Positions 2 to 10,911 of a DNA stretch of 11,008 nucleotides are shown in pieces (position 1 is the first letter of the stretch; every line of letters begins with the position of its first letter). A program made the position numbers and the translations under genes. Origin of the DNA: Synergistetes bacterium JGI 0000079-D21 (GTDB taxonomy: Bacteria > Synergistota > Synergistia > Synergistales > 79-D21); assembly GCA_000402835.1 (NCBI GenBank), contig AQRZ01000030.1, forward strand, positions 3,288 through 14,295, read 5' to 3'. The notes under the pieces are model-generated. The model did not search any database and was not told the origin of the DNA. It worked only from the letters and a program-made list of their open reading frames with translations.

Positions 2-250
2 CACAGCCGGCTGAGCCCCATGGTGAAACTGGCCCGGACGTTCCGGGAGCACAAGGCCGAGATTCTCCGGTGGTTTTCGACCCATATCTCCAACGGTCTC
101 CTGGAGGGGCTGAACAGCCTGTTCCAGGCGGCAAGGGCAAAGGCCCGGGGATATCGAAGCCTCAAGTACGGCATCCTGGCTTTTTACCTCGTCGGAGGTC
201 GTTTTGAATTCCAGTTACCAAAGTTCTATGCCGTCACCCACACAAAATAG
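2..250 (+). CDS. ISL3-family transposase, C-terminal part (cut by window edge)
   Basis: This is the end of a DDE transposase that moves an insertion sequence. The reading frame is open to the left edge, so the Met at position 20 is internal and the gene starts outside the window. The visible part has the ISL3-type C-terminus: a stretch SRLSPMVKLARTF, then SNGLLEGLNSL, in which the Glu of EGLN is by family knowledge the last acidic residue of the DDE triad, then a basic segment ARAKARGYRSL and the tail FEFQLPKF-YAVTHTK. It converges with the ornithine cyclodeaminase-like gene, whose stop is only 15 nt beyond this stop codon. Nothing in the visible part is broken. Whether the whole element is intact cannot be judged, because its left end is not in the window. 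Confidence 0.85.
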   Translation, partial: HSRLSPMVKLARTFREHKAEILRWFSTHISNGLLEGLNSLFQAARAKARGYRSLKYGILAFYLVGGRFEFQLPKFYAVTHTK

Positions 251-265: not shown

Positions 266-1258
266 CTAGACGAAATCGAAGGAACCTCCAAGCCCCTTCT
301 CCTTCGCCCTCTCCAAAACCACCGAGGCCACCGCCACGTCCATGGCACCGGTTCCGATCGGGATGCACAGGATCCGGTCAGACGCCGACACGCGGCCCTG
401 CTTCTTACCCGCCACAACTTCGCCGATCGTCGCGTCGATGTCAGCTTCCGTGATCTTCCCGGCCTCCACCAGTTCCTTCAACGCTCCCCGGTGCAGGCAC
501 TGGCCGATATGGTCCACCACAACGCGGTCGGCCGAAAGGATGAAATCGTCATCCACTTCCTGGTACGAGCCCATTGGAAACACAACCGTCCCGGGCTTCA
601 CCCACTCGTTCTTCACGAACTTGTCCTTGGACTGCGTCACGCACACGATCGCGTCGCCCCACGCAGCGTCCTTCGGTGTGTCCGCGATTACGATGGGGCC
701 CTTCACCACATCCTTCATGTCAGCCGCGAACTTCTCAGCTGCAGGACGGTACACGTCGTACACCCGAATTTCCTCGATGTCAAACACCTTGGAGATCGCT
801 TCCGTCTGAGAGTGCCCCTGGGCTCCCGCACCGTACAGCCCCAGGCGGATCGTAGAACCCTTGTGCAGGTATTTCAGCGCCACCGCAGTCTGCGCCCCTG
901 TCCTCATGGTGGTGATCCATTCCCCGTCCATCACCGCCGTGAAATTCCCGATCTTCGGGTCGATAAGCAGGATCAGGGAGGTGATGTAGGGCAGCCCCAT
1001 CTTCTTCCTCTCTCCAAGGAAGCCTCCGGCCCACTTGATCCCGGCCACGTCCCTCCAACCCACGTAGGCCGGCATAGCGTTCATGAACCCCTGGTATGGC
1101 GGGAAGTCCGCGGTTTCACCCAGATCCAGGCCCACCTTCGTCGGGTTGATCGTCGTCCCTTCACCGAAGCCCTTGAAGGTCTTCTCCACGATCTGGACGA
1201 CTTCCCCCAGGTCCATGACCTTCTTGATGTCTTCCTGGCTCAACAGTACCGTCGACAT
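266..1258 (-). CDS. Ornithine cyclodeaminase / mu-crystallin family NAD(P)-dependent enzyme
   Basis: This is a cytosolic enzyme of the OCD/mu-crystallin fold. The family includes ornithine cyclodeaminase, archaeal alanine dehydrogenase, and ketimine or imino-acid reductases. The 330-residue length is normal. Visible features are the substrate-side segment MPAY with GIKWAGGF (Lys75), TMRTGAQTA (Arg119), and the Rossmann motif GAGAQG at residues 143-148 followed by the acidic strand end YDVY. The C-terminal half carries VVVDH and the ending typical of the family. Where true ornithine cyclodeaminases have a GGD-PG-xEL-like motif with the catalytic Asp, this protein reads MGSYQEVDD (229-237) and lacks that Asp, so ornithine cyclization is unlikely. 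Imine reduction or amino-acid dehydrogenation is a better guess. The start is firm: AAGGAGG lies 8 nt before the ATG. It is the last gene of the operon, 41 nt after the serine dehydratase-like gene. Confidence 0.85.
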   Translation of the reverse strand: MSTVLLSQEDIKKVMDLGEVVQIVEKTFKGFGEGTTINPTKVGLDLGETADFPPYQGFMNAMPAYVGWRDVAGIKWAGGFLGERKKMGLPYITSLILLIDPKIGNFTAVMDGEWITTMRTGAQTAVALKYLHKGSTIRLGLYGAGAQGHSQTEAISKVFDIEEIRVYDVYRPAAEKFAADMKDVVKGPIVIADTPKDAAWGDAIVCVTQSKDKFVKNEWVKPGTVVFPMGSYQEVDDDFILSADRVVVDHIGQCLHRGALKELVEAGKITEADIDATIGEVVAGKKQGRVSASDRILCIPIGTGAMDVAVASVVLERAKEKGLGGSFDFV

Positions 1259-1299
1259 GCCGCATTCCTCCTTCTAGAGATGTCGTTTCGCTTTCCGCG

Positions 1300-2922
1300 T
1301 CACTTTTCCCCGGCAGCTTCCCTCGCCAAGCGTTCCATCTTTTCCGCCAGCAGCCGCTTTGCAGTGGGGGTGATCCCCAACCCGCCCCGCGCGGAGGCCC
1401 TAAGCTCGACCGGCAAAAGTTTCTGGACGTTACAGAGCGCCATGATCACCTCGTCGGCCGGGATCGCGCTCTCGATTCCCGCCCGGGCCATGTCCGCCGC
1501 CACGAATGCGTTCGCGACGCCCATAGCGTTTCTCTTAATGCAGGGAACTTCGACCGCCCCCGCTACGGGGTCGCAGACGAGCCCCAAGACGTTCTTTAGG
1601 GCGATTGCCATGGCGTTCGCCACTTGGGAAGGAGTCCCCCCATCCAGCTGGACCAGTGCCGAGGCCGTCATGGCCGAGGCAACGCCAACCTCCGACTGGC
1701 AGCCACCCATCGTTCCGGAGACGGGTGCGACGAGCGCGATCACGGAGCCGACCGCCGCTGAAACGAGCAGCGCGTCCACGACCTGGTCCTCCGTCGCTCT
1801 CAGTACCTCTGCCGCCGTCAGCAGCGCGCCGGGTATGACCCCGGCTGCCCCGGCGGTAGGAGCCGCCACGACACGCCCCATGCAGGCATCGCATTCCATG
1901 CAGGCTAGGGCTCGGGCGGCCGCAAGGGCCAGTGTTTTGCCCGAAAGGGAAAGCCCTGCCTCCGCGCGCTCTGCAAGCCGGTACCCCGCATCTCCGGGTA
2001 CGAGACCACTCAGCACGGCGTTCTTGCCCTGAATTCCCGTTTCGACGGATGTCACCATTACCTTCCAGATCTCACGAGCCATTAGCCTGACCTCTGTCTC
2101 GGACATACCACTTCGCTTCTTTTCGTAAGCAATTGCGGCATCGGCCATCGAGCCCCCTTCCCTCTCGCACCAGGCCACTATCTCGGCAATGCTCTTAAAA
2201 AGGGGCACAGGGTCATACAGCCGGTAGGCGAGAAGGTTGTCGAAAGCCGAAACCCGGGTCACGCCGGGCAGCTTCCGCACCTCCTCCAGGCAGGCGACGC
2301 AAGCAGGTTTTTCAAGGATCCCGACGTAGAGGAAATGGCCGTTCTTCTCGATACATTCAACTTCCAAAAGGTTTTTCCCGAAGACGTTCCGCAGGGCCCG
2401 CTCGAGCGCCCCGTCTGACGAAAAGACCAAAAACCCGTCCTCGTTGCCCTGGATGTTGACCGGAAACCCGTCGACCTCCGACATGACGATCTCGCTGCCG
2501 CCCACGGAAAGCCCCGTGACGTGGACCGACTCGCCGCCCCGCCGCAGGTCCATCTCGATCGAAATGGGCTTCGGCCGGGCATCCGGCGGCGCCGCTTCTT
2601 CCGGCTTGATGCGGGTCGAGACCTTTATCCCCCGGGAAGCCGCGATTTCACGGGCATCCCTGATCTCGGGGGCATCCACGGCAAACCCCATGAGGCCACC
2701 GATCGCCGCCGCGTCGGTCGAGTTCCCCCGGTACTTGCATCCGAAGGTCTCGGAAAAATACAGGTCCACTTCTTCGGGTTCCCCCCCGAGGAACATCCTC
2801 CCCATGCGGCCGATCTTGACAGCCCCGGCCGTGGCTGAGCTGGAAGGGCCCGTCATGATGGGACCCAGGACATCGAAAAGGCTCAGCAGTCTTTCTTTCC
2901 CGGACAAATCAAACGCCTCCAT
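1300..2922 (-). CDS. Fused iron-sulfur L-serine dehydratase-like protein (beta-ACT-alpha)
   Basis: By family this is a [4Fe-4S] serine ammonia-lyase (L-serine to pyruvate plus ammonia), here with both subunits on one 540-residue chain. Residues 1 to about 150 match the SdaAB beta domain (SLFDVLGPIMTGPSSS, then GGSEIVMSEVDGF). About 155-235 looks like a degenerate ACT domain. About 245-540 matches the SdaAA alpha domain, with ACMGRVVAAPTAGAAG, GGCQSEVG (Cys408) and LVCDPVAGAVEVPC (Cys450, Cys461), the expected cluster ligands. The motif usually read GPSSSHTAGA has Ala30 instead of His, and the usual GHGTD reads GNSTD (residues 66-70). RETGxGGLAxTPT reads RASARGGLGITPT. The substrate may therefore not be serine. 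The ATG overlaps the preceding gene by 14 nt. An alternative TTG start at 2907 sits 8 nt after GGAGG and just past that gene's stop codon. Confidence 0.88.
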   Translation of the reverse strand: MEAFDLSGKERLLSLFDVLGPIMTGPSSSATAGAVKIGRMGRMFLGGEPEEVDLYFSETFGCKYRGNSTDAAAIGGLMGFAVDAPEIRDAREIAASRGIKVSTRIKPEEAAPPDARPKPISIEMDLRRGGESVHVTGLSVGGSEIVMSEVDGFPVNIQGNEDGFLVFSSDGALERALRNVFGKNLLEVECIEKNGHFLYVGILEKPACVACLEEVRKLPGVTRVSAFDNLLAYRLYDPVPLFKSIAEIVAWCEREGGSMADAAIAYEKKRSGMSETEVRLMAREIWKVMVTSVETGIQGKNAVLSGLVPGDAGYRLAERAEAGLSLSGKTLALAAARALACMECDACMGRVVAAPTAGAAGVIPGALLTAAEVLRATEDQVVDALLVSAAVGSVIALVAPVSGTMGGCQSEVGVASAMTASALVQLDGGTPSQVANAMAIALKNVLGLVCDPVAGAVEVPCIKRNAMGVANAFVAADMARAGIESAIPADEVIMALCNVQKLLPVELRASARGGLGITPTAKRLLAEKMERLAREAAGEK

Positions 2923-4105
2923 CCGCGCAGCATTCCCGTGGTTTTTTCCTGGCCGGCTCCCGCGGGATCGCGTACTCGAAGTTCCCGTTCAGCTCGGACT
3001 TCGTGGGCTTCCCCCCAGCGACTTCCAGGAGAAGCCCGTAGAGAGCTTCACCCGTTTCGGGAATCGGTTTTCCCTCTACGACCACACCGGCGTTGAAATC
3101 GGTGATGCTTTCGAGTTTCCTGAAGGTGGCGGGATTCCCGGTGATCTTGATCACGGGCATGACCGCGCACCCGACCGGCGAGCCCCGTCCGCTGCTGAAA
3201 ACGGTCACGTTCGCCCCCTGTATCGCGAAGCCCGTCACGTTGAAGGGATCCGGGCCCTGGGCCCGGTTGTCCACCACCCAGAGGCCGGGATGGGGGATCG
3301 GGTCTCCCAGTTGCAGGACTCCCTGGACCGGGGAGCTTCCCATCTTCTTGACATTGCCCATAGACTTTTCCACCAGGGTGGTGATGCCGCCGGCCCTGTT
3401 GCCGGGGGTGGGGTTGACTTCCTCGATGGTCTGGCCGTAAAGCTCGACGTACTCCGCCCGGAGATCGGAAACCATGTCCAGCACCTGCAGGCCCACCTCG
3501 CGGTTCACCGCGTTGGCAGCCACGATGTGCTCGCTGCCCGGGAAGCCCATGACCTCCGACATGAGGACACTGCCGCCGTTTTCGATCACCCGGTCGGCCA
3601 TCGCACCGATCACGGTGTTGCCGGCCACCGCGGTGGTCCAGTCGGAACCCCCGCACTGGATGCCCACGACGAGCCCCCCGGCGCTGCAGGGGATCCGTTC
3701 CTGCCGAGCTGCCTCTTCCTGCAGTTTCCTGACGATTTCGACTCCCCTGGCTTCCGCCTCCGGGGAGCCTCCCTCTTCCTGGATCAGGATGCCTTCGACC
3801 GGTTTCCCTATCGAAGCGATGGCCTGTTTGACGTCGGCCAGAGATGTCTGCTCGCACCCTAGGCCCACAAGCAGGACCCCGAAGACGTTCGGGTTTGTGC
3901 CCGCCGAGACGAGGGCCAGTTTTGTCCGCCTGTGGTCTTCCTGGAATTCCACGCACCCGAACTCGTGAGTGATGGGAACGGCTCCCGTCGCCTGGGCGAT
4001 CCTGGAGACGACCGTGTTTGAACAGGACACCATCGAGATGACAAGCACCTGGTTCCGGATCCCGATCCTTCCGTCCGGTCTTCTGAAGGCAAGGATTTCC
4101 TTCAT
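2909..4105 (-). CDS. UxaA-family lyase/dehydratase, large subunit
   Basis: This is the large subunit of a split altronate/galactarate dehydratase-type enzyme, a superfamily that removes water, or sulfite in sulfolactate sulfo-lyase, from hydroxy acids using a metal site. In the 398 residues I see RRPDGRIGIRN (8-18), a Cys in VSMVSCSNTVV (Cys28), FGC (Cys51), GLGCEQ (81-86), IQCGGSD (149-155), PGNRAGGITTLVEKSMGN (about 234-251) and GRGSPVGCAVMPVIKITGN (about 307-324). These are the family's landmarks. After QCGGSD the usual SG-TANP reads TTAVAGN, so the active-site loop differs from sugar-acid dehydratases. The ATG lies 7 nt after the small-subunit gene, with a GGGAG in the end of that gene. 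The pair form is also that of sulfolactate sulfo-lyase SuyAB, but the same split is common in uncharacterised UxaA-family pairs, so no substrate is assigned. Confidence 0.82.
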   Translation of the reverse strand: MKEILAFRRPDGRIGIRNQVLVISMVSCSNTVVSRIAQATGAVPITHEFGCVEFQEDHRRTKLALVSAGTNPNVFGVLLVGLGCEQTSLADVKQAIASIGKPVEGILIQEEGGSPEAEARGVEIVRKLQEEAARQERIPCSAGGLVVGIQCGGSDWTTAVAGNTVIGAMADRVIENGGSVLMSEVMGFPGSEHIVAANAVNREVGLQVLDMVSDLRAEYVELYGQTIEEVNPTPGNRAGGITTLVEKSMGNVKKMGSSPVQGVLQLGDPIPHPGLWVVDNRAQGPDPFNVTGFAIQGANVTVFSSGRGSPVGCAVMPVIKITGNPATFRKLESITDFNAGVVVEGKPIPETGEALYGLLLEVAGGKPTKSELNGNFEYAIPREPARKKPRECCADGGV

Positions 4106-4112
4106 CCCGCGC

Positions 4113-4418
4113 TCACGCTCCCATCCCGCGGATCTTTTTCGCGTAATTTTCGCTGAGTTCCTCTGTAATATCCTCTAGGTTGTGGACATGGACGTGGTCC
4201 CCGGCCGGAATGGATACTTGCGCCCGTCCGATGGGAACCCCGAACTTAACGACCATTTGTCCTTGCCCGATCGGAGCCAGGGCGACCTTGTGCCCCAGAG
4301 GGATGTCCGCTATCGCCGTGACCTTAAGCCCGGAACAATCTAGTCGGTCGCCCTTCGCCGTGTTTTGGGCGACTACCGCCACGTTGTCATCCTTCTCGAT
4401 ACGGATGGCTCTCTTCAT
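4113..4418 (-). CDS. UxaA-family lyase, small SAF-domain subunit
   Basis: This 101-residue protein corresponds to the N-terminal SAF domain of altronate/galactarate dehydratases, encoded separately here. It ends the beta-clip fold with FGVPIGRAQVSI-PAGDHVHVHNL (about residues 59-82). The HVHVHNL signature and the preceding GVPIGRA are diagnostic of this family. It would form a complex with the large subunit encoded 7 nt downstream. Its ATG overlaps the TGA of the preceding dehydrogenase gene (ATGA at 4418-4415), so translation is probably coupled. The length is usual for split small subunits such as SuyA. Confidence 0.82.
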   Translation of the reverse strand: MKRAIRIEKDDNVAVVAQNTAKGDRLDCSGLKVTAIADIPLGHKVALAPIGQGQMVVKFGVPIGRAQVSIPAGDHVHVHNLEDITEELSENYAKKIRGMGA

Positions 4419-5503
4419 CGGCAGTCACCGTCGACGAAGCGGCGGACCTGCTCCAAGGTCATCCCCGAAAGGCCCATCTTCTCGATCCCCGGTCCGGTCT
4501 CGTGGAAATCCTGCCCTGTGGCAGCAGCAAGAAGGCAGACAAGTGCATCCGTTACCGGCGTAGGGATACCGGCCAGCCTCCCCAAAGCGGAGAGCGGAAC
4601 CATGGAAAAGGGCGTGTCCTCCGTCAGGAAGCGGTGATTCAAAGTCGAAGGTGCGTCTATCCCGCTAAAGGCCGGGTTAGCGTGAATGACCGCGTGGAGG
4701 TCCTTGCCGTCGACTCCATACTGCATCCTGATAGTCTCATAGATACTCGCAAGCTCGAACCCGAAGGCCTGTCCGACGGCAACCCGTTCGCGGTCTGCCG
4801 CTTCCATGACGCGGCAGACCGACGGTGGCGTCCCTTCCGCGTAGAAACGAAAAACGGTGTTTTCGTCCTCAATGCGCCCTGCGTTCATGAGCATGGGAGC
4901 GCAATGGGCAATGCTGTTCGTGTTGGACAGGCTGGTTTGGAGCACATTCCTGCCTCTGGTAACCGTGGTGCAGAAGGCTCCCTTCACGGCCGCCTCCACA
5001 CATGCGTAATCGCTATTCGGCAAGGCCGCGAGCATCACCGACTTTTTGACGCCCTTGACGTCGACCCGGCCCGGTTCTAGCGCCACGCAGGCGTAGGGGA
5101 GGTTGTCCGTCTCCGCCACGATCACTCGTTTACCCGCTTCTGCGAAGGCTCGCCTTAGGGCGAATGTACCGAAATTTCCAGGCGAGAGGACGAGAATTTG
5201 CCCGTCTTTGAAGTGGGGCAGGGCCAGTTCGAAAAAGAGCTCCTGGGCGTAAGATGGGGCCGTGAAGTAGACGAGTTCCGCTTCCACCAGAGCTTCAGCG
5301 GCGTCGGTCGTGGAGTTGGCGAGTCTCCCCATGCCGACGACTTTGTTTTCCAGCTCGATGATATTTCCCCGTTCGCGGATCGCCGTGATCTTCGATTTGA
5401 AAAGAGGATGTTCGTAAAGGGTGACGTCGTGTCCCCTGAGAGCGAGCTCCCCCGCGAGGGCTTGGCCGCCGTTTCCAGCGCTCATGACGGTAATCCTGCC
5501 CAT
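4415..5503 (-). CDS. Octopine/nopaline dehydrogenase-family enzyme
   Basis: This is an NAD(P)-dependent dehydrogenase of the opine family. Known members reductively join, or oxidatively split, an amino acid and an oxoacid such as pyruvate. With the start chosen here it has 362 residues. The N-terminal Rossmann motif is SAGNGGQA (8-15), where GAGNGG is usual. The C-terminal opine-dehydrogenase domain begins near SNTNSIAHCAPMLMNAGRI, with His200 at the position of the family's catalytic His, followed by FRFYAEGTPPSV and DRERVAVGQAFGF. The frame extends upstream to an ATG at 5572, but the ATG at 5503 is preferred: AAAGGAG lies 10 nt before it, the Rossmann strand starts at once, and the extension would be read through a hairpin. 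It follows dctP and overlaps the next gene by 4 nt. Confidence 0.82.
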   Translation of the reverse strand: MGRITVMSAGNGGQALAGELALRGHDVTLYEHPLFKSKITAIRERGNIIELENKVVGMGRLANSTTDAAEALVEAELVYFTAPSYAQELFFELALPHFKDGQILVLSPGNFGTFALRRAFAEAGKRVIVAETDNLPYACVALEPGRVDVKGVKKSVMLAALPNSDYACVEAAVKGAFCTTVTRGRNVLQTSLSNTNSIAHCAPMLMNAGRIEDENTVFRFYAEGTPPSVCRVMEAADRERVAVGQAFGFELASIYETIRMQYGVDGKDLHAVIHANPAFSGIDAPSTLNHRFLTEDTPFSMVPLSALGRLAGIPTPVTDALVCLLAAATGQDFHETGPGIEKMGLSGMTLEQVRRFVDGDCR

Positions 5504-5537
5504 TTCTGATTCACTCCTTTTCCTATTCCTTCCAAAA

Positions 5538-5561
5538 GGGCGCAGCCTGACGGCTGCGCCC
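5538..5561 (-). terminator. Hairpin with short T run after dctP (terminator or attenuator)
   Basis: This is a perfect 10-bp GC-rich stem (GGGCGCAGCC pairing with GGCTGCGCCC) with a 4-nt loop. On the minus strand it is followed directly by TTTT and then GG. It begins 17 nt after the dctP stop. The T run is short, so partial termination, or protection of the dctP mRNA 3' end, is as likely as full termination. No T run follows on the plus strand. The five downstream genes have no obvious own promoter before the next start at 5503. Confidence 0.7.
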
Positions 5562-5578
5562 CTAACCTTCATCGGGTT

Positions 5579-6589
5579 CTATTTCAGAACAAACGTCGCT
5601 GAGATCTCATTGAAGACTTTGTCCCCAAGGACTTTTTTCAGTTCAGGCCATGCAAGCTCACGACCCCGTTTTGCAAACGCTTCCAACTGCTGTGGCGTCA
5701 GTTTAATGATCTTCACTCCGGACTTAGCAAGCAGGGTCTCGTAAACATCCTGATCCTGCTCGACTTTCACCCAGCGCCGGTTCTCAAGTTCCCTTGCCTT
5801 CTCGTCCAGGATCTTCCGGTCTTTCGGCGAGAGGGAATTATAGAGGTCCAGGTTAATCGTGATGGGCCAGCACTCGAAGTGCGTGTTCAACGGAATGTAA
5901 AACTTAATCAGGTCACGGAACGTGACGTAGTAATTTTCAGCACCGCCGCCCATGATGCCGTCCACCATCCCCGTCTGAGCCGCAGTGAAAAATTCCGAGA
6001 AAGGCAACGGAGTTGCCTGGTAACCGAAACCGTTAGCCAAGGCCTCCCAGGTCTTCATAGCCGGTACACGGACCTTCAGGTTCTGCTTGCCCATCGGGTT
6101 TGTCGGATCCGCAGGCTGTTTCAATAGGCCAACACCGCCAAAGTAAACGGGCCAGTAGCCCAGGACCTTGATATTTTGTTTCTCGTAAACCTTAGCGATG
6201 TAGTTCGCAAAGGGTGTACCGGAAGCATAGTTCTTTTTTGCGGTTGCGTAATCCCGCACTAGGTAGGGCATTGTGAAGGCCAGGCCACGCTTGTCGACCG
6301 AGGTTGACATGGACATGCACCCCATTTCCACTGAGCCCAAGCCAATCTTCTCTTGCACTACCGTGTAGTCACCAAGCTGATTGGCCCCGTAAATATTCAC
6401 CGTGATCCGACCCCCGGTCGCTGCTTTCAGTTCCTCGGAGAACCTCTTCAATTCTTTGTCGATTGTTGAGCCCTGCGGGCGAATATGGGCCATCTTCCAC
6501 GTATAAGTTTTCTCTGCCGCGAAGGCCACCCCTGAAAGCATCGAGAGCCCCATGACTAGCACTAGCAAAAAGGCAAGCTTTCTCACCAT
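5579..6589 (-). CDS. dctP: TRAP transporter substrate-binding protein
   Basis: This is the periplasmic (or exported) binding protein of a TRAP transporter, which hands an organic anion to the DctQM membrane proteins using a sodium or proton gradient. The 336 residues start with a clear Sec signal peptide: MVRK, a hydrophobic core to about residue 20, and AFA before a likely cut after residue 24. The mature part opens with the DctP-like TYTWKMAHIRPQGS. It has LKVRVP with Arg174, by family knowledge the residue that binds the substrate carboxylate, then PLPFSEFFTAAQTGMVDGIMGG. The start is supported by AAAGGGGAG 6 nt before the ATG. It is separated from dctQM by the cyuA-like gene and a 126-nt gap. 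Its base composition is lower in GC than that of the neighbours upstream. The ligand is unknown; a carboxylate or amino-acid-like acid is likely. Confidence 0.92.
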   Translation of the reverse strand: MVRKLAFLLVLVMGLSMLSGVAFAAEKTYTWKMAHIRPQGSTIDKELKRFSEELKAATGGRITVNIYGANQLGDYTVVQEKIGLGSVEMGCMSMSTSVDKRGLAFTMPYLVRDYATAKKNYASGTPFANYIAKVYEKQNIKVLGYWPVYFGGVGLLKQPADPTNPMGKQNLKVRVPAMKTWEALANGFGYQATPLPFSEFFTAAQTGMVDGIMGGGAENYYVTFRDLIKFYIPLNTHFECWPITINLDLYNSLSPKDRKILDEKARELENRRWVKVEQDQDVYETLLAKSGVKIIKLTPQQLEAFAKRGRELAWPELKKVLGDKVFNEISATFVLK

Positions 6590-6715
6590 TTTTTACTCCC
6601 CTTTCGCATTATTCTGTTCCGACTGATAAATCTCCGCCTAATCTCCTCCAACCGCGTTACCACTCCCACGAAAGGTTTCGCCCCCCATTCTGAGTTTTAT
6701 TTTTCTTGGTTTTTC

Positions 6716-8002
6716 TCAGGATCGCCTAGCGGCGACCTGTTGCTCTCGCTCGAAAATCAGCCGACACATTGTTTCATCAGCCTTTCCCAGCCCTTCACGG
6801 GCCATGCGCCCCATCAGGCGAATCGTCTCGTTGGCCGTTGCGCAGACGAACCCGTCCCCGCCTCGAATCGCCGAACCCTGCATCGCCAGGTAGGCGGACT
6901 CGATCGCCGCCCCGGCCGCCACGGAGAGTTTTAGCGCGCAACCGTGCTTGGCCCCGTCGCACAGAACCCCCAAAGTGCTCCCGACCACGTTACGGATCGC
7001 CCCGTCGGCCTGTTTTGCCGTTCCCCCAAGAAGCAGAACCATGCCCCCCGCGATCCCGATGCTGGAAGCGATGGCACAGGCACAAAAAGCCGAATAGCGG
7101 CCAATGTAGCTCTTGATCTGAATCGTCAGGAGGAAGCTGAGTGCGATCGCCCGGAGCATCCGGTCCTCGTCGGCCCCCAGTTCCCAGGCCATGACGGTTA
7201 GCGGTACCGAAGCCGTAATCCCCACGTTCCCGCTAGTGGCGCAGCTCATGGCGGGCAGGCTTTCGCCCGACATCCGGGCATCGGCCGCGGAGGCCGCCAT
7301 GCTCTTGGCCTTCTGGATCGCCCCCAAGGAGGGGATCCCCGAAAAGCCGCTCCCGAAGTTTTCCCCTATCCCTTCCTGGAGCCCCTGCTCCGCCAGCGCC
7401 ATGTTCAGGGTCACGGCCTCCCGCAGGAACAAAAGGTTGTCGATCGGCTCCTTCACCGCAAAGTCCCAGAGATCCTCCAGCCCGTAGGACCGGATCGGGT
7501 CTTTGGTCTCGTCGGTGACTTCCCTGAATCCCGAGGGGTAAGCGCCGCGGACCAGTTTTCCGTCCAGTTCCACGAAGATGACCTGGTCGTGCTTCTTGGC
7601 CACGAGGGCGTGCCCCGTGCCGCGGTCGCTTTCCACCCAGGTTTCGATGTAAAGCCCGACCCCGTCGAAGTCCCACTTTATGTCGACGCTCACCGAGGGG
7701 AGCAGGGCCCGTGCCCTTTCCGCGTCGGCAGGCTTGACCTTCTTCAGGACCTCCAGGCCCGCCTCCGACACACCCGCGACGGCCCCTAGGGCCGAGGCGA
7801 TGGGGATGCCCCTTAAGTCGATCCCGGGGATACCGACCGCGCAGTTCTTCACGTAGGTATCCTTGTCCATCAGGACCCGGACCTTTTTCGGGATCCCGCC
7901 CACCGCGTCCTTCGCCACCGCCACAGCAAAGGCGACCGCCACCGGCCCCGTACAGCCCAGGGCAGGCTTGACCTCGGAACGCAGGATTTCCAAAAGACTC
8001 AT
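6716..8002 (-). CDS. L-cysteine desulfidase / YhaM (CyuA, UPF0597) family protein
   Basis: This 428-residue protein is related to the serine dehydratase alpha domain. Characterised members (archaeal CdsB, E. coli CyuA/YhaM) break L-cysteine into pyruvate, sulfide and ammonia with a [4Fe-4S] cluster. Landmarks are VKPALGCTGP near the N-terminus (Cys17), ADARMSGESLPAMS (240-253), SGNVGITASVP, the Cys-rich SAFCACA (Cys307, Cys309) and LCDGAKHGCALK (Cys348, Cys355). The spacing of the last Cys residues fits the cluster ligands I recall for CdsB. The usual GCTEP reads GCTGP, so Glu is replaced by Gly19. The frame opens with a GTG at 8014, but that codon directly abuts the AAGGAGG, so the ATG at 8002, 12 nt beyond it, is preferred. 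It lies between dctM and dctP, so it is probably a first catabolic step for the imported compound; cysteine is only one candidate. Confidence 0.85.
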   Translation of the reverse strand: MSLLEILRSEVKPALGCTGPVAVAFAVAVAKDAVGGIPKKVRVLMDKDTYVKNCAVGIPGIDLRGIPIASALGAVAGVSEAGLEVLKKVKPADAERARALLPSVSVDIKWDFDGVGLYIETWVESDRGTGHALVAKKHDQVIFVELDGKLVRGAYPSGFREVTDETKDPIRSYGLEDLWDFAVKEPIDNLLFLREAVTLNMALAEQGLQEGIGENFGSGFSGIPSLGAIQKAKSMAASAADARMSGESLPAMSCATSGNVGITASVPLTVMAWELGADEDRMLRAIALSFLLTIQIKSYIGRYSAFCACAIASSIGIAGGMVLLLGGTAKQADGAIRNVVGSTLGVLCDGAKHGCALKLSVAAGAAIESAYLAMQGSAIRGGDGFVCATANETIRLMGRMAREGLGKADETMCRLIFEREQQVAARRS

Positions 8003-8057
8003 CGTTTTATTCACCCTCCTTCTTCATCTTCATTAGATTCATTCCGAAGAATCGCGC

Positions 8058-9362
8058 CTACACGTACCCCAGCAGCTTCGGCAGCCAGAGCGAAAGCGGA
8101 GGCCAGTACGTGGTCACCAACATCACCGGGATATAACCAGCCAGGAGGATGCCCACGTTGGGCAGCATGTCCATGAACTCCACCCTGCCGATCCGCATGC
8201 CCAGGTAGAGGAGACTCGCGTAGGGCGGCGTGATCGAGCCGATCGCCATGTTCGTGACGAACATCGCCGCGTAATGAATCGGGTTCATCCCGATCGCCTG
8301 CGTCAGGGGGAGAAGCAGCGGGGCCACCAGGATGATCCCGGTCGTGTCGTTGACGATCATGCCGACGAACAGCAGGATGAGGTTGATCATCAGCAGGATG
8401 AGGGTCTTGTTCTGGGTGATGCTGAAAACGGCCGAAACGATATGTTGGGGGACCTGGAGCACGACGTAGGTCTGGCTCAGCATCATGCTGCACATGATCA
8501 TGACCATGATCGTGCCGGTGGAAACAGCCGCGTTCCTTGAAATGTCGCAAAAACTCTTCAAGGACAGCCCCCTGTAAACGAAGAACCCGACGGGGATGGA
8601 GTAGATGACGGCCACGGCTGCGGCTTCGGTCGGGGTCATGGCGCCGCCGTAAATGCCGCCGAGGATGATGACGGGCATCAAGAGGGCAGGCAGCGCGCTC
8701 CAGCCCTTGGAAAAGATCTGGCGCCGCTTTTCCTTGCCCGTGATCGGCGGAAGGATGACAAGAGGGAACTTGCGGACCATGAATCGGTTGATCGCGCAGA
8801 AGATCGCCACGGTCAAAAGACCCGGGCCAACGGTGGACAGAAAGCCTGCCAGAACACTCGTCCCCGTCACGTAACCGAAGATAATCATTGGGGTGCTCGG
8901 GGGGATGAGCACTCCAAGAACCGAAGAAACCGTCACCAGAGCGGTCGCGAAGGGCCTGGGGTAGCCGCGCTTTTCCATCTCGGGGATGAGGATGTTACCG
9001 GTCGCCGCAACACCCGTGAAGGCACTCCCGGAGATCGCCCCGATTATGGCGGAAGCCACCGTCGAAACGTAGCCGAGCCCTCCCTTGACCCGGCCGACGA
9101 AGATGTCGACGAACTCCAGCAGCCGTTTGGCGATGCCACTGTCGCTCATGAGGCCACCAGCGTAGATGAACAGGGGGATGCAGAGCAGGGCCGGGCTCAG
9201 TATCTGCTGGAGGCCCCACATCATCATGCCCTTCATGGAAACTTCGCCGACCAGGATCATGAACAGGAGAGCCCCGCTGAAGCAGAAGGCAATGGGGACG
9301 CCGACGGAAAGGAGGATCATCAAGATCCCGAGAGAAATCGCGGAAAGGGTTACGCCGTCCAT
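8058..9362 (-). CDS. dctM: TRAP transporter large permease subunit
   Basis: This is the transport channel of the TRAP system in the inner membrane. It has 434 residues and about a dozen hydrophobic segments, the normal size for DctM. Conserved motifs are IPLFIYAGGLM, GAISGSAFTGVAATGNILIPEM, GVLIPPSTPMIIFG, GGIYGGAMTPTEAAAVAV, VGMIVNDTTGIILVAPLLLP and GSITPPYASLLY. The start is well supported: AGGAGG lies 10 nt before the ATG, inside the end of dctQ, whose stop codon is 2 nt away, so the two are translated together. A 55-nt gap separates it from the cyuA-like gene. Confidence 0.95.
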   Translation of the reverse strand: MDGVTLSAISLGILMILLSVGVPIAFCFSGALLFMILVGEVSMKGMMMWGLQQILSPALLCIPLFIYAGGLMSDSGIAKRLLEFVDIFVGRVKGGLGYVSTVASAIIGAISGSAFTGVAATGNILIPEMEKRGYPRPFATALVTVSSVLGVLIPPSTPMIIFGYVTGTSVLAGFLSTVGPGLLTVAIFCAINRFMVRKFPLVILPPITGKEKRRQIFSKGWSALPALLMPVIILGGIYGGAMTPTEAAAVAVIYSIPVGFFVYRGLSLKSFCDISRNAAVSTGTIMVMIMCSMMLSQTYVVLQVPQHIVSAVFSITQNKTLILLMINLILLFVGMIVNDTTGIILVAPLLLPLTQAIGMNPIHYAAMFVTNMAIGSITPPYASLLYLGMRIGRVEFMDMLPNVGILLAGYIPVMLVTTYWPPLSLWLPKLLGYV

Positions 9363-9364
9363 AG

Positions 9365-9901
9365 TCAGATTTCCTCCTCGATCGCCTTGGCCAGGGGTAG
9401 TTCTGCGCCCTTGTAAAGCGAGACGTAGTCGACGATCTCAACTATCGTGTAGAAAAGCATCAGGGCAAAGCAAACGAAGACCGCACCCTCGGCAAGCGTC
9501 CAGCGGATGAAGAGCGTGTCGGTCTCCTTCTCGACCCGTAGGGAATACTTGAGCAGGTCGTACCCCCAGTAGGTCAGCCACATGAGGATCGGGGTCGTGA
9601 CGACGGCCGCGAAGGCCCGCAGGAGGTACACTTTCTTTCTGTCCTTGATGAAGATCTCCAGCACCCTCGCATAAAGCTGGGTCTTCTCGGAAGAGGCATA
9701 GACGGCGGCGAAGAGGTAGAGCCACGTGGACGGGAAATAACAAAGTTCCTCGATGCCCATAAGGGGGGCACGGAAGACGTAGCGAAGGAGGACCTGCACG
9801 AACACCAAAACTGAAAGAGCCAGGAGGTTTAGCAAAATAAAAACGCCAATAATCTTATCTAGCCAATAAACGGACCTTCGGAACAAGCTTAGTTGCTGCA
9901 A
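9365..9901 (-). CDS. dctQ: TRAP transporter small permease subunit
   Basis: This is the small membrane subunit that pairs with DctM. From the chosen start it has 178 residues and four hydrophobic segments (about 15-38, 54-71, 93-116 and 135-158). The family landmarks are a WLDK-type amphipathic start, VQVLLRYVFRAP, and GIEELCYF after the first segment. The start is uncertain. A TTG at 9901 has GGGGGGA 5 nt upstream and gives the usual DctQ N-terminus and length. An ATG at 9973 would add 24 residues without a clear SD. The frame stays open to a TTG at 10084, which would give 239 residues, long for DctQ and overlapping a possible promoter. It is the first gene of the operon and is divergent from the regulator gene. 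Confidence 0.88.
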   Translation of the reverse strand: MQQLSLFRRSVYWLDKIIGVFILLNLLALSVLVFVQVLLRYVFRAPLMGIEELCYFPSTWLYLFAAVYASSEKTQLYARVLEIFIKDRKKVYLLRAFAAVVTTPILMWLTYWGYDLLKYSLRVEKETDTLFIRWTLAEGAVFVCFALMLFYTIVEIVDYVSLYKGAELPLAKAIEEEI

Positions 9902-10040
9902 GCGAATCCCCCCAGTTTCAATAAACACTTCTAGATGTTTTTCTAAAGTCCAGGACTGCCTGCCGTAAATCATTTTACTTACATTACGCCCCATACCTCC
10001 CATTCGAATAAAGTTGTGATACAATAAACTAAGACGTTTT

Positions 10041-10067
10041 TTGTAGGACAGCCCTACCGTACTACAA
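10041..10067. promoter_or_regulatory. Candidate operator: 27-bp inverted repeat
   Basis: The outer arms are TTGTAG (10041-10046) and CTACAA (10062-10067), a perfect 6-bp inverted repeat. Inside it, GTAGG (10043-10047) and CCTAC (10053-10057) form a second, 15-bp inverted repeat that shares the left arm. Three similar half-sites in 27 bp, overlapping the predicted -10 of the operon promoter, suit binding by a dimeric FadR-type repressor. Function is inferred from position and symmetry only. Confidence 0.4.
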
Positions 10068-10084
10068 TTAGGGCTTCTCGTCAA
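10056..10084 (-). promoter_or_regulatory. Possible promoter of the catabolic operon
   Basis: On the minus strand TTGACG (10084-10079) matches the -35 consensus at five of six bases. Seventeen nt later stands TACGGT (10061-10056), a poor -10 with three of six matches. A weak -10 would suit an activated promoter or one whose real -10 I have not recognised. It overlaps the 27-bp inverted repeat. Confidence 0.3.
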
Positions 10085-10150
10085 TAACCATTTGGGGGTG
10101 CAAATTCTGCAACGATGTTTTAAACTTCAGTATTATCAGGGGATCTATGT

Positions 10151-10180
10151 TTGAGTTATCAGGGCAGGGATTCCGATAAT
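10151..10180 (+). promoter_or_regulatory. Probable promoter of the GntR-type regulator gene
   Basis: TTGAGT (10151-10156, four of six -35 bases) is followed after 18 nt by GATAAT (10175-10180, five of six -10 bases). Transcription would start near 10187, leaving a short leader that includes AAGGAG (10197-10202), 10 nt before the ATG. The -35 overlaps one copy of a TTATCAGGG repeat, which could allow self-regulation. Confidence 0.55.
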
Positions 10181-10212
10181 GTTAAACTTGAATTATAAGG
10201 AGAAATGCATAC

Positions 10213-10911
10213 ATGTTGAAACCCGCAAACAAATCCACTCTACATAAGGACATCATGGAGCAGATGCTTCAGGCAATAAGAGACAAACACTGGGTCCCCG
10301 GAGAGAAACTCCCGGGAGAAAAAGCGCTTGCTTCAACTTTTGGCGTGAGCCGAAACTGCATACGGGAGGTTTTGAAGGCACTTGAGCATGCGGGGATCCT
10401 GGAGGCGAAGCCGGGCCAAGGCACATTTCTCTCAAGGAATGCCGGTAAGCTCTCCGAAGGAGCAGACGTGGCCACAGCGATTTTTGAGAATTCTTCTTAT
10501 AACGAACTCATGGAAATTAGGCGACTTCTCGAAGGGCAGGCTGCCTACAACGCCGCAGAGCGGGTAACCCTGAAAGATATTGAAAAATTAGAGTACATCC
10601 TGAGGGGAGAGGAGCGAGGAGAAACACTGGATTTCATCCATGATCGGTTCCATGAAGCCGTCGTTGAACTCTCAGGGAACCGTCTCTTAGGTAGATTGCT
10701 TGAATTCCTGAAAAACGAGATTCAGGCCCAACGACAGTTCCACTATGCCATATTGCCCACCGAGGACCGTCTGGAACATTGGAAAGTTTTAGAAGCGATA
10801 AAGACTCGAGAGCCTGGCAAGGCCTGGAAAGCCATGCTCAACCACGTCGACTACTTCTGGAGAAAAATGCCTCAAGTTAAGAGCAACACCCCAAAAGACA
10901 AAGGTGATTAG
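10213..10911 (+). CDS. GntR-family transcriptional regulator, FadR/FCD type
   Basis: This 232-residue DNA-binding regulator probably controls the divergent operon. The N-terminal winged helix spans about residues 8-76, with PGEKLPGEKALASTFGVSR as helix-turn-helix lead-in and AGILEAKPGQGTFLS as wing. The C-terminal all-helical FCD domain, about 97-215, binds a metal and an organic-acid ligand in known members. The metal site normally uses Asp, His, His, His with spacing near 4, 44 and 22. Here the matching positions are His143, His147, His189 and His211, so the Asp is replaced by His, with Asp144 next to it. The start is set by AAGGAG 10 nt upstream of the ATG. The last 97 nt of the window after this gene show no gene or clear terminator. 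Confidence 0.9.
   Translation: MLKPANKSTLHKDIMEQMLQAIRDKHWVPGEKLPGEKALASTFGVSRNCIREVLKALEHAGILEAKPGQGTFLSRNAGKLSEGADVATAIFENSSYNELMEIRRLLEGQAAYNAAERVTLKDIEKLEYILRGEERGETLDFIHDRFHEAVVELSGNRLLGRLLEFLKNEIQAQRQFHYAILPTEDRLEHWKVLEAIKTREPGKAWKAMLNHVDYFWRKMPQVKSNTPKDKGD

What the first reader, a model, noticed from the sequence alone, without database searches (positions are those of the whole stretch)
266..10084. Uncharacterised TRAP-linked catabolic operon pairing opine-type and OCD-type dehydrogenases with three lyase families
One co-directional block holds DctQM and DctP, a CyuA/YhaM-like protein, an opine dehydrogenase-like enzyme, a split UxaA-type lyase, a fused serine dehydratase-like protein and an OCD-family enzyme. 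I know of no described pathway with this set. Two enzymes of imine or secondary-amine chemistry plus three elimination enzymes suggest breakdown of a substituted amino acid: an opine-like N-carboxyalkyl amino acid, a beta-hydroxy amino acid or a thio/sulfo amino acid. The products would be pyruvate-type oxoacids and ammonia. Gene content is seen; the pathway is inference.
Basis: partly seen in the sequence, partly recalled or inferred. Interest (0 to 1): 0.7.

Follow-up and report, generated by a model that had tools for sequence, protein, structure and literature searches.

The report
Opine-like amino acid breakdown operon
A set of genes from an uncultured anaerobic bacterium appears to import an unusual amino acid in which two acids are joined through a shared nitrogen and to split it, and it belongs to a recurring, apparently undescribed gene module that in sister versions uses a selenium enzyme instead.

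Summary
The operon is real: GntR, DctQM, a CyuA-like protein, DctP, an opine dehydrogenase (ODH), a split UxaA-type lyase, a fused SdaAB-like protein and an OCD-family protein, on a Synergistota contig. One of 185 Synergistota genomes has the same full order, a second all but the genes beyond its contig edge; 37 hold at least one member of the clades counted. In sister operons the UxaA pair is replaced by a GrdGF-type selenoprotein reductase of a distinct clade, and one genome carries both versions with OCD genes identical at 985 of 990 bases. A few operons hold, as mapped, only this transporter plus an ODH, or only this transporter plus GrdGF. The 'three lyases' reading fails in part: the CyuA-like protein lacks the catalytic Glu of cysteine desulfidase (15 of 15 module members; 16 of 16 controls read keep Glu or Asp), and the SdaAB-like protein lacks the catalytic His, although it still passes NCBI's cut-off for the serine ammonia-lyase alpha subunit. 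Only the UxaA pair keeps its published cysteines. Substrate and activities are unproven.

The parts
10213..10911 (+). GntR/FCD-family regulator, divergent
   Evidence: Pfam GntR 68.1 and FCD 65.5 bits
9365..10084 (-). DctQ, TRAP small permease (true start probably downstream of 10084)
   Evidence: Pfam DctQ 41.4 bits; relatives 178-182 aa
8058..9362 (-). DctM, TRAP large permease
   Evidence: Pfam DctM 288.9 bits; TIGR00786 322 bits, cut-off 268.45
6716..8014 (-). CyuA/UPF0597-like [4Fe-4S] protein; cluster cysteines C311, C352, C359 kept, catalytic Glu replaced by Gly23
   Evidence: Pfam SDH_alpha; alignment to 9fsl; motif survey
5579..6589 (-). DctP, TRAP substrate-binding protein of a module-linked clade
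   Evidence: Pfam DctP; clade survey; 42 invariant columns in 24 members
4415..5572 (-). Opine dehydrogenase-like protein (probable start 5503, 362 aa)
   Evidence: Pfam Octopine_DH 160.1; 1bg6 at 2.3e-57; H223/R314/D319 kept
4113..4418 (-). UxaA-type SAF subunit
   Evidence: Pfam SAF 36.4 bits
2909..4105 (-). UxaA-type catalytic subunit, cysteines 28, 51, 84, 151 kept
   Evidence: Pfam GD_AH domains; alignment to 6u7l; Cys list
1300..2922 (-). Fused SdaB-SdaA-like protein; cluster cysteines 408, 450, 461 kept; SSSHT is SSSAT and GHx[T/S]D is GNSTD
266..1258 (-). OCD/mu-crystallin-family NAD(P)-dependent enzyme of a distinct subfamily
   Evidence: Pfam OCD 193.5 bits

Best explanation
The TRAP transporter imports an opine-type compound, that is, an amino acid whose nitrogen also carries a second carboxyalkyl group. 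The opine dehydrogenase, the OCD-family enzyme or both cleave the secondary amine with NAD(P)+ through an imine, giving an amino acid and a 2-oxoacid for fermentation. The UxaA-type pair handles a hydroxylated part of this substrate by alpha,beta-elimination; sister operons instead carry a GrdGF selenoprotein reductase that would cut the same kind of C-N bond reductively. The CyuA-like and SdaAB-like proteins probably bind [4Fe-4S] clusters but must work with another base, on another substrate, or not at all. Shown: gene content, conservation, catalytic residues kept or lost. Inferred: substrate, reactions, order of steps.
Confidence: 0.42

Rival explanations
1. Hydroxy-acid or sugar-acid pathway: UxaA dehydrates an imported 2,3-dihydroxy acid, and ODH is in truth a 2-hydroxy-acid dehydrogenase; OCD and the SDH proteins serve the amino-acid side.
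For: UxaA/GarD relatives are mostly sugar-acid dehydratases (PMC6336799, passages) and the four cysteines are kept. Five ODH loci (L054, L057, L058, L061, L075) carry a protein of a mandelate-racemase/dehydratase-family cluster (one member annotated).
Against: ODH matches a true opine dehydrogenase over nearly its whole length. UxaA lies beside only 6 of 42 ODHs. GrdGF and OCD call for an amine.
Confidence: 0.2
2. Plain amino-acid fermentation: OCD is an L-amino-acid dehydrogenase and the TRAP takes up an ordinary or D-amino acid, ODH making an opine as an electron sink.
For: OCD is nearest to alanine dehydrogenase; six loci (L044, L051, L052, L056, L059, L060) carry a gene of an amino-acid binding-protein cluster, one member annotated as glutamine/arginine/lysine type. 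The SdaAB-like protein passes TIGR00718 (263.6, cut-off 243.2).
Against: Alanine-dehydrogenase equivalog cut-off not reached; Arg52 of AF1665 is Asn and the Asp219 loop is missing (residue roles recalled). TRAP plus ODH alone (L116, L117) makes little sense as a sink.
Confidence: 0.2
3. Beta-hydroxyaspartate-like pathway: lyases dehydrate a hydroxy-amino dicarboxylate and OCD reduces the imine as BhcD does.
Against: BhcD cut-off is 500; two of the lyases lack the published base; no ODH role.
Confidence: 0.08
4. Sulfonate pathway: the split UxaA is a SuyAB-type sulfolactate sulfo-lyase fed by OCD acting on cysteate.
Against: PMC6336799 says SuyAB lacks the four conserved cysteines; the window keeps all four. 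Sulfite-handling genes were not looked for.
Confidence: 0.05

Closest known systems
Ti-plasmid octopine/nopaline catabolic regions (occ, noc)
   Same: Importer, an opine-cleaving enzyme and an OCD-family gene in one region (PMC4575208, passages)
   Different: There the opine is cleaved by OoxAB/NoxAB-type enzymes, uptake is by an ABC permease and OCD acts on ornithine; here PF02317, TRAP uptake, Fe-S lyase relatives and an OCD of another subfamily
N-(1-D-carboxyethyl)-L-norvaline dehydrogenase (1bg6)
   Same: Match over residues 27-380, catalytic His/Arg/Asp positions kept
   Different: Substrate of the window enzyme unknown
Strombine/tauropine dehydrogenases of marine sponges (PF02423)
   Same: Same Pfam family as the OCD protein, opine chemistry (PMC4575208, passages)
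   Different: No sequence comparison was made here
SbnB (N-(1-amino-1-carboxyl-2-ethyl)-glutamate enzyme)
   Same: OCD fold, secondary-amine ligand, short loop where AF1665 has Asp219
   Different: 24-25% identity; TIGR03944 159.5 bits against a 326.9 cut-off; SbnB is biosynthetic
Sarcosine/glycine reductase component B and the far fluoroacetate operon of Synergistota
   Same: Sister operons carry a GrdGF pair with an in-frame TGA in GrdF; far shows Synergistota using such B components for another substrate (PMC10838667, passages)
   Different: Sarcosine GrdG model 451 bits against a 780 cut-off; TRAP and ODH/OCD context; none in the window itself
CyuA L-cysteine desulfidase
   Same: Family and three cluster cysteines
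   Different: Catalytic Glu25 is Gly; sits in a TRAP/ODH/OCD operon

Membership tests
PF02317 opine dehydrogenase | Octopine_DH domain | tested here: met
   160.1 bits, cut-off 30
PF02317 opine dehydrogenase | Catalytic His/Arg/Asp (1bg6 H202/R292/D297; roles recalled) | tested here: met
   H223/R314/D319; 59 of 60 aligned; the odd one is L062, whose place has a stop inside
PF02317 opine dehydrogenase | NAD(P)-dependent cleavage of an opine | not testable with these tools
   needs enzyme assay
L-cysteine desulfidase CyuA | Three cluster cysteines | tested here: met
   C311, C352, C359 align with cysteines of 9fsl
L-cysteine desulfidase CyuA | Catalytic Glu25 (E25A/Q/D inactive in PMC12647591, passages) | tested here: not met
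   Gly23 in the window; GCTGP in 15 of 15 module members, GCT[E/D]P in 16 of 16 controls read
[4Fe-4S] L-serine dehydratase | TIGR00718 alpha-subunit equivalog cut-off 243.2 | tested here: met
   263.6 bits; the beta model TIGR00719 is not reached, 109.9 against 161.2
[4Fe-4S] L-serine dehydratase | Three cluster cysteines | tested here: met
   C408, C450, C461
[4Fe-4S] L-serine dehydratase | Catalytic His61 (LpLSD; role from PMC12647591, passages) | tested here: not met
   Asn67 in the window, placed by a weak alignment and the GHx[T/S]D motif of relatives; 20 of 20 control fusions have Gln there
[4Fe-4S] L-serine dehydratase | SSSHT motif (recalled) | tested here: not met
   SSSAT in the window, L036 and L037; SSSHT in 20 of 20 controls
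UxaA/GarD family | SAF plus GD_AH domains and four conserved cysteines | tested here: met
   PMC6336799 passages
Galactarate dehydratase equivalog TIGR03248 | Score at least 730.85 | tested here: not met
   157.5 bits for the catalytic subunit, 39.1 for the SAF subunit, scored apart
Sulfolactate sulfo-lyase SuyAB | Lacks the four cysteines (PMC6336799) | tested here: not met
   all four present; no SuyAB sequence was compared
Archaeal alanine dehydrogenase TIGR02371 | Score at least 409.15 | tested here: not met
   230.1 bits
SbnB TIGR03944 | Score at least 326.9 | tested here: not met
   159.5 bits
BhcD iminosuccinate reductase NF045643 | Score at least 500 | tested here: not met
   131 bits
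TRAP transporter | DctP, DctQ and DctM together | tested here: met

The most novel reading that the evidence does not exclude
Synergistota (with the OCD subfamily also in Clostridia) ferment opines by a dedicated modular system: a TRAP importer of one clade, two unrelated NAD-dependent opine dehydrogenases, and either a UxaA-type lyase or a new opine-specific selenoprotein reductase (GrdGF type). The system has also recruited two [4Fe-4S] lyases that lost their known catalytic base and therefore run a different reaction.
Probability: 0.25. Interest if true: 0.8.

Novelty: new variant of a known kind. Interest (0 to 1): 0.58.

Why it matters
Anaerobic opine breakdown and a selenoprotein reductase for secondary-amine amino acids would be new metabolism, as far as the searches here show. 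The CyuA subfamily without its catalytic Glu, the same in all 15 module members read, is a clean test case for how [4Fe-4S] amino-acid lyases change function, and it shows that the name CyuA, and perhaps SdaA, is misleading here.

Tried and rejected
Sulfolactate sulfo-lyase: dropped as leading idea after the cysteine test. Ordinary cysteine/serine degradation: lowered after the base tests, though the SdaA-alpha cut-off is passed. I first took the His of SSSHT for LpLSD His61; the numbering (chain of 476 residues, Cys458 as last residue in PMC12647591) places His61 in the GHGTD motif instead.

Own genome: none held. Plasmid search with UxaA-C: best hits about 40%, named mostly UxaA family hydrolase. 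DctP fold search: the top rows cover several ligands and are tied, so no ligand follows. Paper searches; no title or abstract listed showed this module, but only open-licence papers are held and only passages of five papers were read. The 4rqo paper is not held. Contexts of an Aerococcus OCD (L191) and an Agrobacterium ODH (L192) gave no clue.

Results against or limiting: two module-type CyuA genes (G120:C2, G041:C111) have no other module-clade gene within 12 kb. Three out-of-clade CyuAs, two out-of-clade SDHfus and one out-of-clade DctP do lie near module genes. DctP: 28 of 33 with strict neighbours; four of the other five have a distant ODH (28-34%) next door, one (G135, L120) has none and lies near an aromatic amino acid lyase. 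8 of 42 ODHs and 4 of 49 OCDs stand alone. L096 (TRAP plus GrdGFX) ends at its contig edge and is not counted as a minimal operon; L190 has purine genes about 340 bases behind the OCD. Clade limits were set by eye: clear identity gaps for UxaA-C and CyuA, smaller ones for GrdG and SDHfus, for DctP only a step in bit score (269 to 231, identity 39% against at most 38%), none for ODH and OCD, which were cut by E-value. The GrdG and CyuA out-of-clade rows are not complete: the GrdG listing was cut, and only 52 CyuA rows were entered.

Full report
What is there. The window (11,008 bases; no whole genome held) carries one minus-strand operon behind a divergent GntR regulator: DctQ, DctM, CyuA-like, DctP, opine dehydrogenase (ODH), UxaA-N (SAF), UxaA-C, a fused SdaB-SdaA-like protein (SDHfus) and an OCD-family protein. 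Named close relatives of ODH and OCD come from Synergistales, so the contig is most likely from Synergistota.

Conservation. ODH was searched in 185 genomes of this phylum; 30 have a match at E 1e-60. G011 (L037) has the same ten genes in the same order. G010 (L036) has DctM to OCD in that order from the very start of its contig. G036, G039 and G019 carry UxaA-N/C, ODH, DctP, DctM, DctQ and CyuA in other orders. How sharply the module clades stand out differs: UxaA-C 71-88% then 44%, CyuA-like 52-87% then 41%, GrdG 58-100% then 51%, SDHfus 43-85% then 40% or less for near-full matches, DctP 39-90% then 38% or less, with a step in score from 269 to 231 bits; ODH and OCD were cut by E-value only. 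Within 12 kb, another module family is found for 6 of 6 UxaA-C (out-of-clade 0 of 21), 15 of 16 GrdG (0 of 134 listed), 21 of 21 SDHfus (2 of 71), 13 of 15 CyuA (3 of 52 entered), 28 of 33 DctP (1 of 34), 45 of 49 OCD and 34 of 42 ODH. In all, 37 of 185 genomes hold some member of these clades.

Sister operons. The GrdGF pair is related to sarcosine reductase component B but far below its cut-off (GrdG 451 against 780 bits). GrdF has an in-frame TGA followed by GTGTRCGAT in 15 of 15 loci read, as expected of a selenoprotein. No UxaA-C of the clade lies within 12 kb of a GrdG of the clade. G010 carries both an operon with UxaA and one with GrdGF; their OCD genes are identical at 985 of 990 bases, while the 1,837-base block that includes the end of SDHfus averages 83.5%. 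I read this as recent exchange, so OCD likely does the same job in both.

Minimal operons. As mapped, L116 and L117 hold GntR, DctQMP and an ODH of a second, distant family (28%), and L097 holds GntR, DctQMP and GrdG-GrdF-GrdX without ODH or OCD; L096 looks like L097 but ends at its contig edge. Their DctPs belong to the window's clade: 24 members share 42 invariant columns. R37, Y75, Y149, E218 and H237 are in 32 of 32 clade sequences but in 3, 4, 2, 3 and 4 of 22 outgroup DctPs, while R174 is in all 54. Whether these line the pocket was not tested. Outside the phylum, two Vescimonas plasmids have sodium symporter-OCD (62% and 46% identity to the window OCD) and a Cytobacillus plasmid has sodium symporter-ODH (32%). 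So each enzyme is sometimes found with little besides a transporter.

Why opine-like. PF02317 holds the octopine/nopaline dehydrogenases, and PMC4575208 (passages) says that the sponge strombine and tauropine dehydrogenases belong to PF02423, the OCD family. The window thus has a member of each of two families with proven opine dehydrogenases. ODH matches 1bg6 over 27-380 and the His/Arg/Asp positions are kept in 59 of 60 aligned ODHs. Glycine/sarcosine-type reductases cut the C-N bond of glycine and N-substituted glycines (recalled). A compound open to ODH alone and to GrdGF alone is most simply an N-carboxymethyl-type opine. This is inference; the UxaA pair must deal with some hydroxylated variant and is the least explained part.

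The lyases. PMC12647591 (passages) gives Glu25 of CyuA as the alpha-proton base, with E25A, E25Q and E25D inactive, and cites His61 as the base of L. pneumophila L-serine dehydratase. The window CyuA-like protein has Gly at the Glu25 position, as do 15 of 15 module-clade members, while 16 of 16 out-of-clade CyuAs read have Glu or Asp. SDHfus of the window, G010 and G011 has SSSAT and GN(S/A)TD; SDHfus of the Grd-type loci read keeps SSSHT and GHx[T/S]D. One of each tandem SDHfus pair in L072 and L073 has SSSAT but keeps GHASD. Twenty control fusions keep SSSHT but have Gln at the His61 position, so loss of that His alone is not unique to the window. Against this, SDHfus still passes the NCBI cut-off for the serine ammonia-lyase alpha subunit (263.6 against 243.2), though not that for the beta subunit. 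Both window proteins keep the three cluster cysteines. The CyuA-like protein is very probably not a cysteine desulfidase, and SDHfus is doubtful as a serine dehydratase; they may act on another configuration or substrate, or only bind it. UxaA-C keeps all four family cysteines, against a SuyAB identity (PMC6336799, passages).

Verdict. No description of the module was found in the papers searched.

Noticed in passing
window 2-250 (+): C-terminal end of an ISL3-type transposase cut by the window edge (Pfam DDE_Tnp_ISL3 58.2 bits), just beyond the OCD gene.
   Followed up: yes
L045 15085-17513; also L046, L048, L049, L050, L063, L092-L101: A clade of GrdGF-type reductase components distinct from the other GrdG homologues listed, mostly beside TRAP, OCD, ODH or SDHfus genes.
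   Followed up: partly
L036 8131-9120 and L049 11381-12370: Two OCD genes of one genome identical at 985 of 990 bases in two different operons.
   Followed up: partly
L136-L155: Twenty fused SdaAB-like proteins of Synergistota keep SSSHT but have Gln in place of the His of the GHx[T/S]D motif; their activity may also differ from L-serine dehydratase.
   Followed up: no
window 10120-10192: Imperfect inverted repeat (18-base arms, 72%) between the divergent GntR and DctQ genes, a possible operator; weak evidence.
   Followed up: no
L044, L051, L052, L056, L059, L060; also L104: A family-3 amino-acid binding protein gene near ODH and/or OCD, in place of or beside the TRAP.
   Followed up: partly
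L189, L190: Human-derived Vescimonas plasmids carry two sodium symporter-OCD pairs.
   Followed up: no
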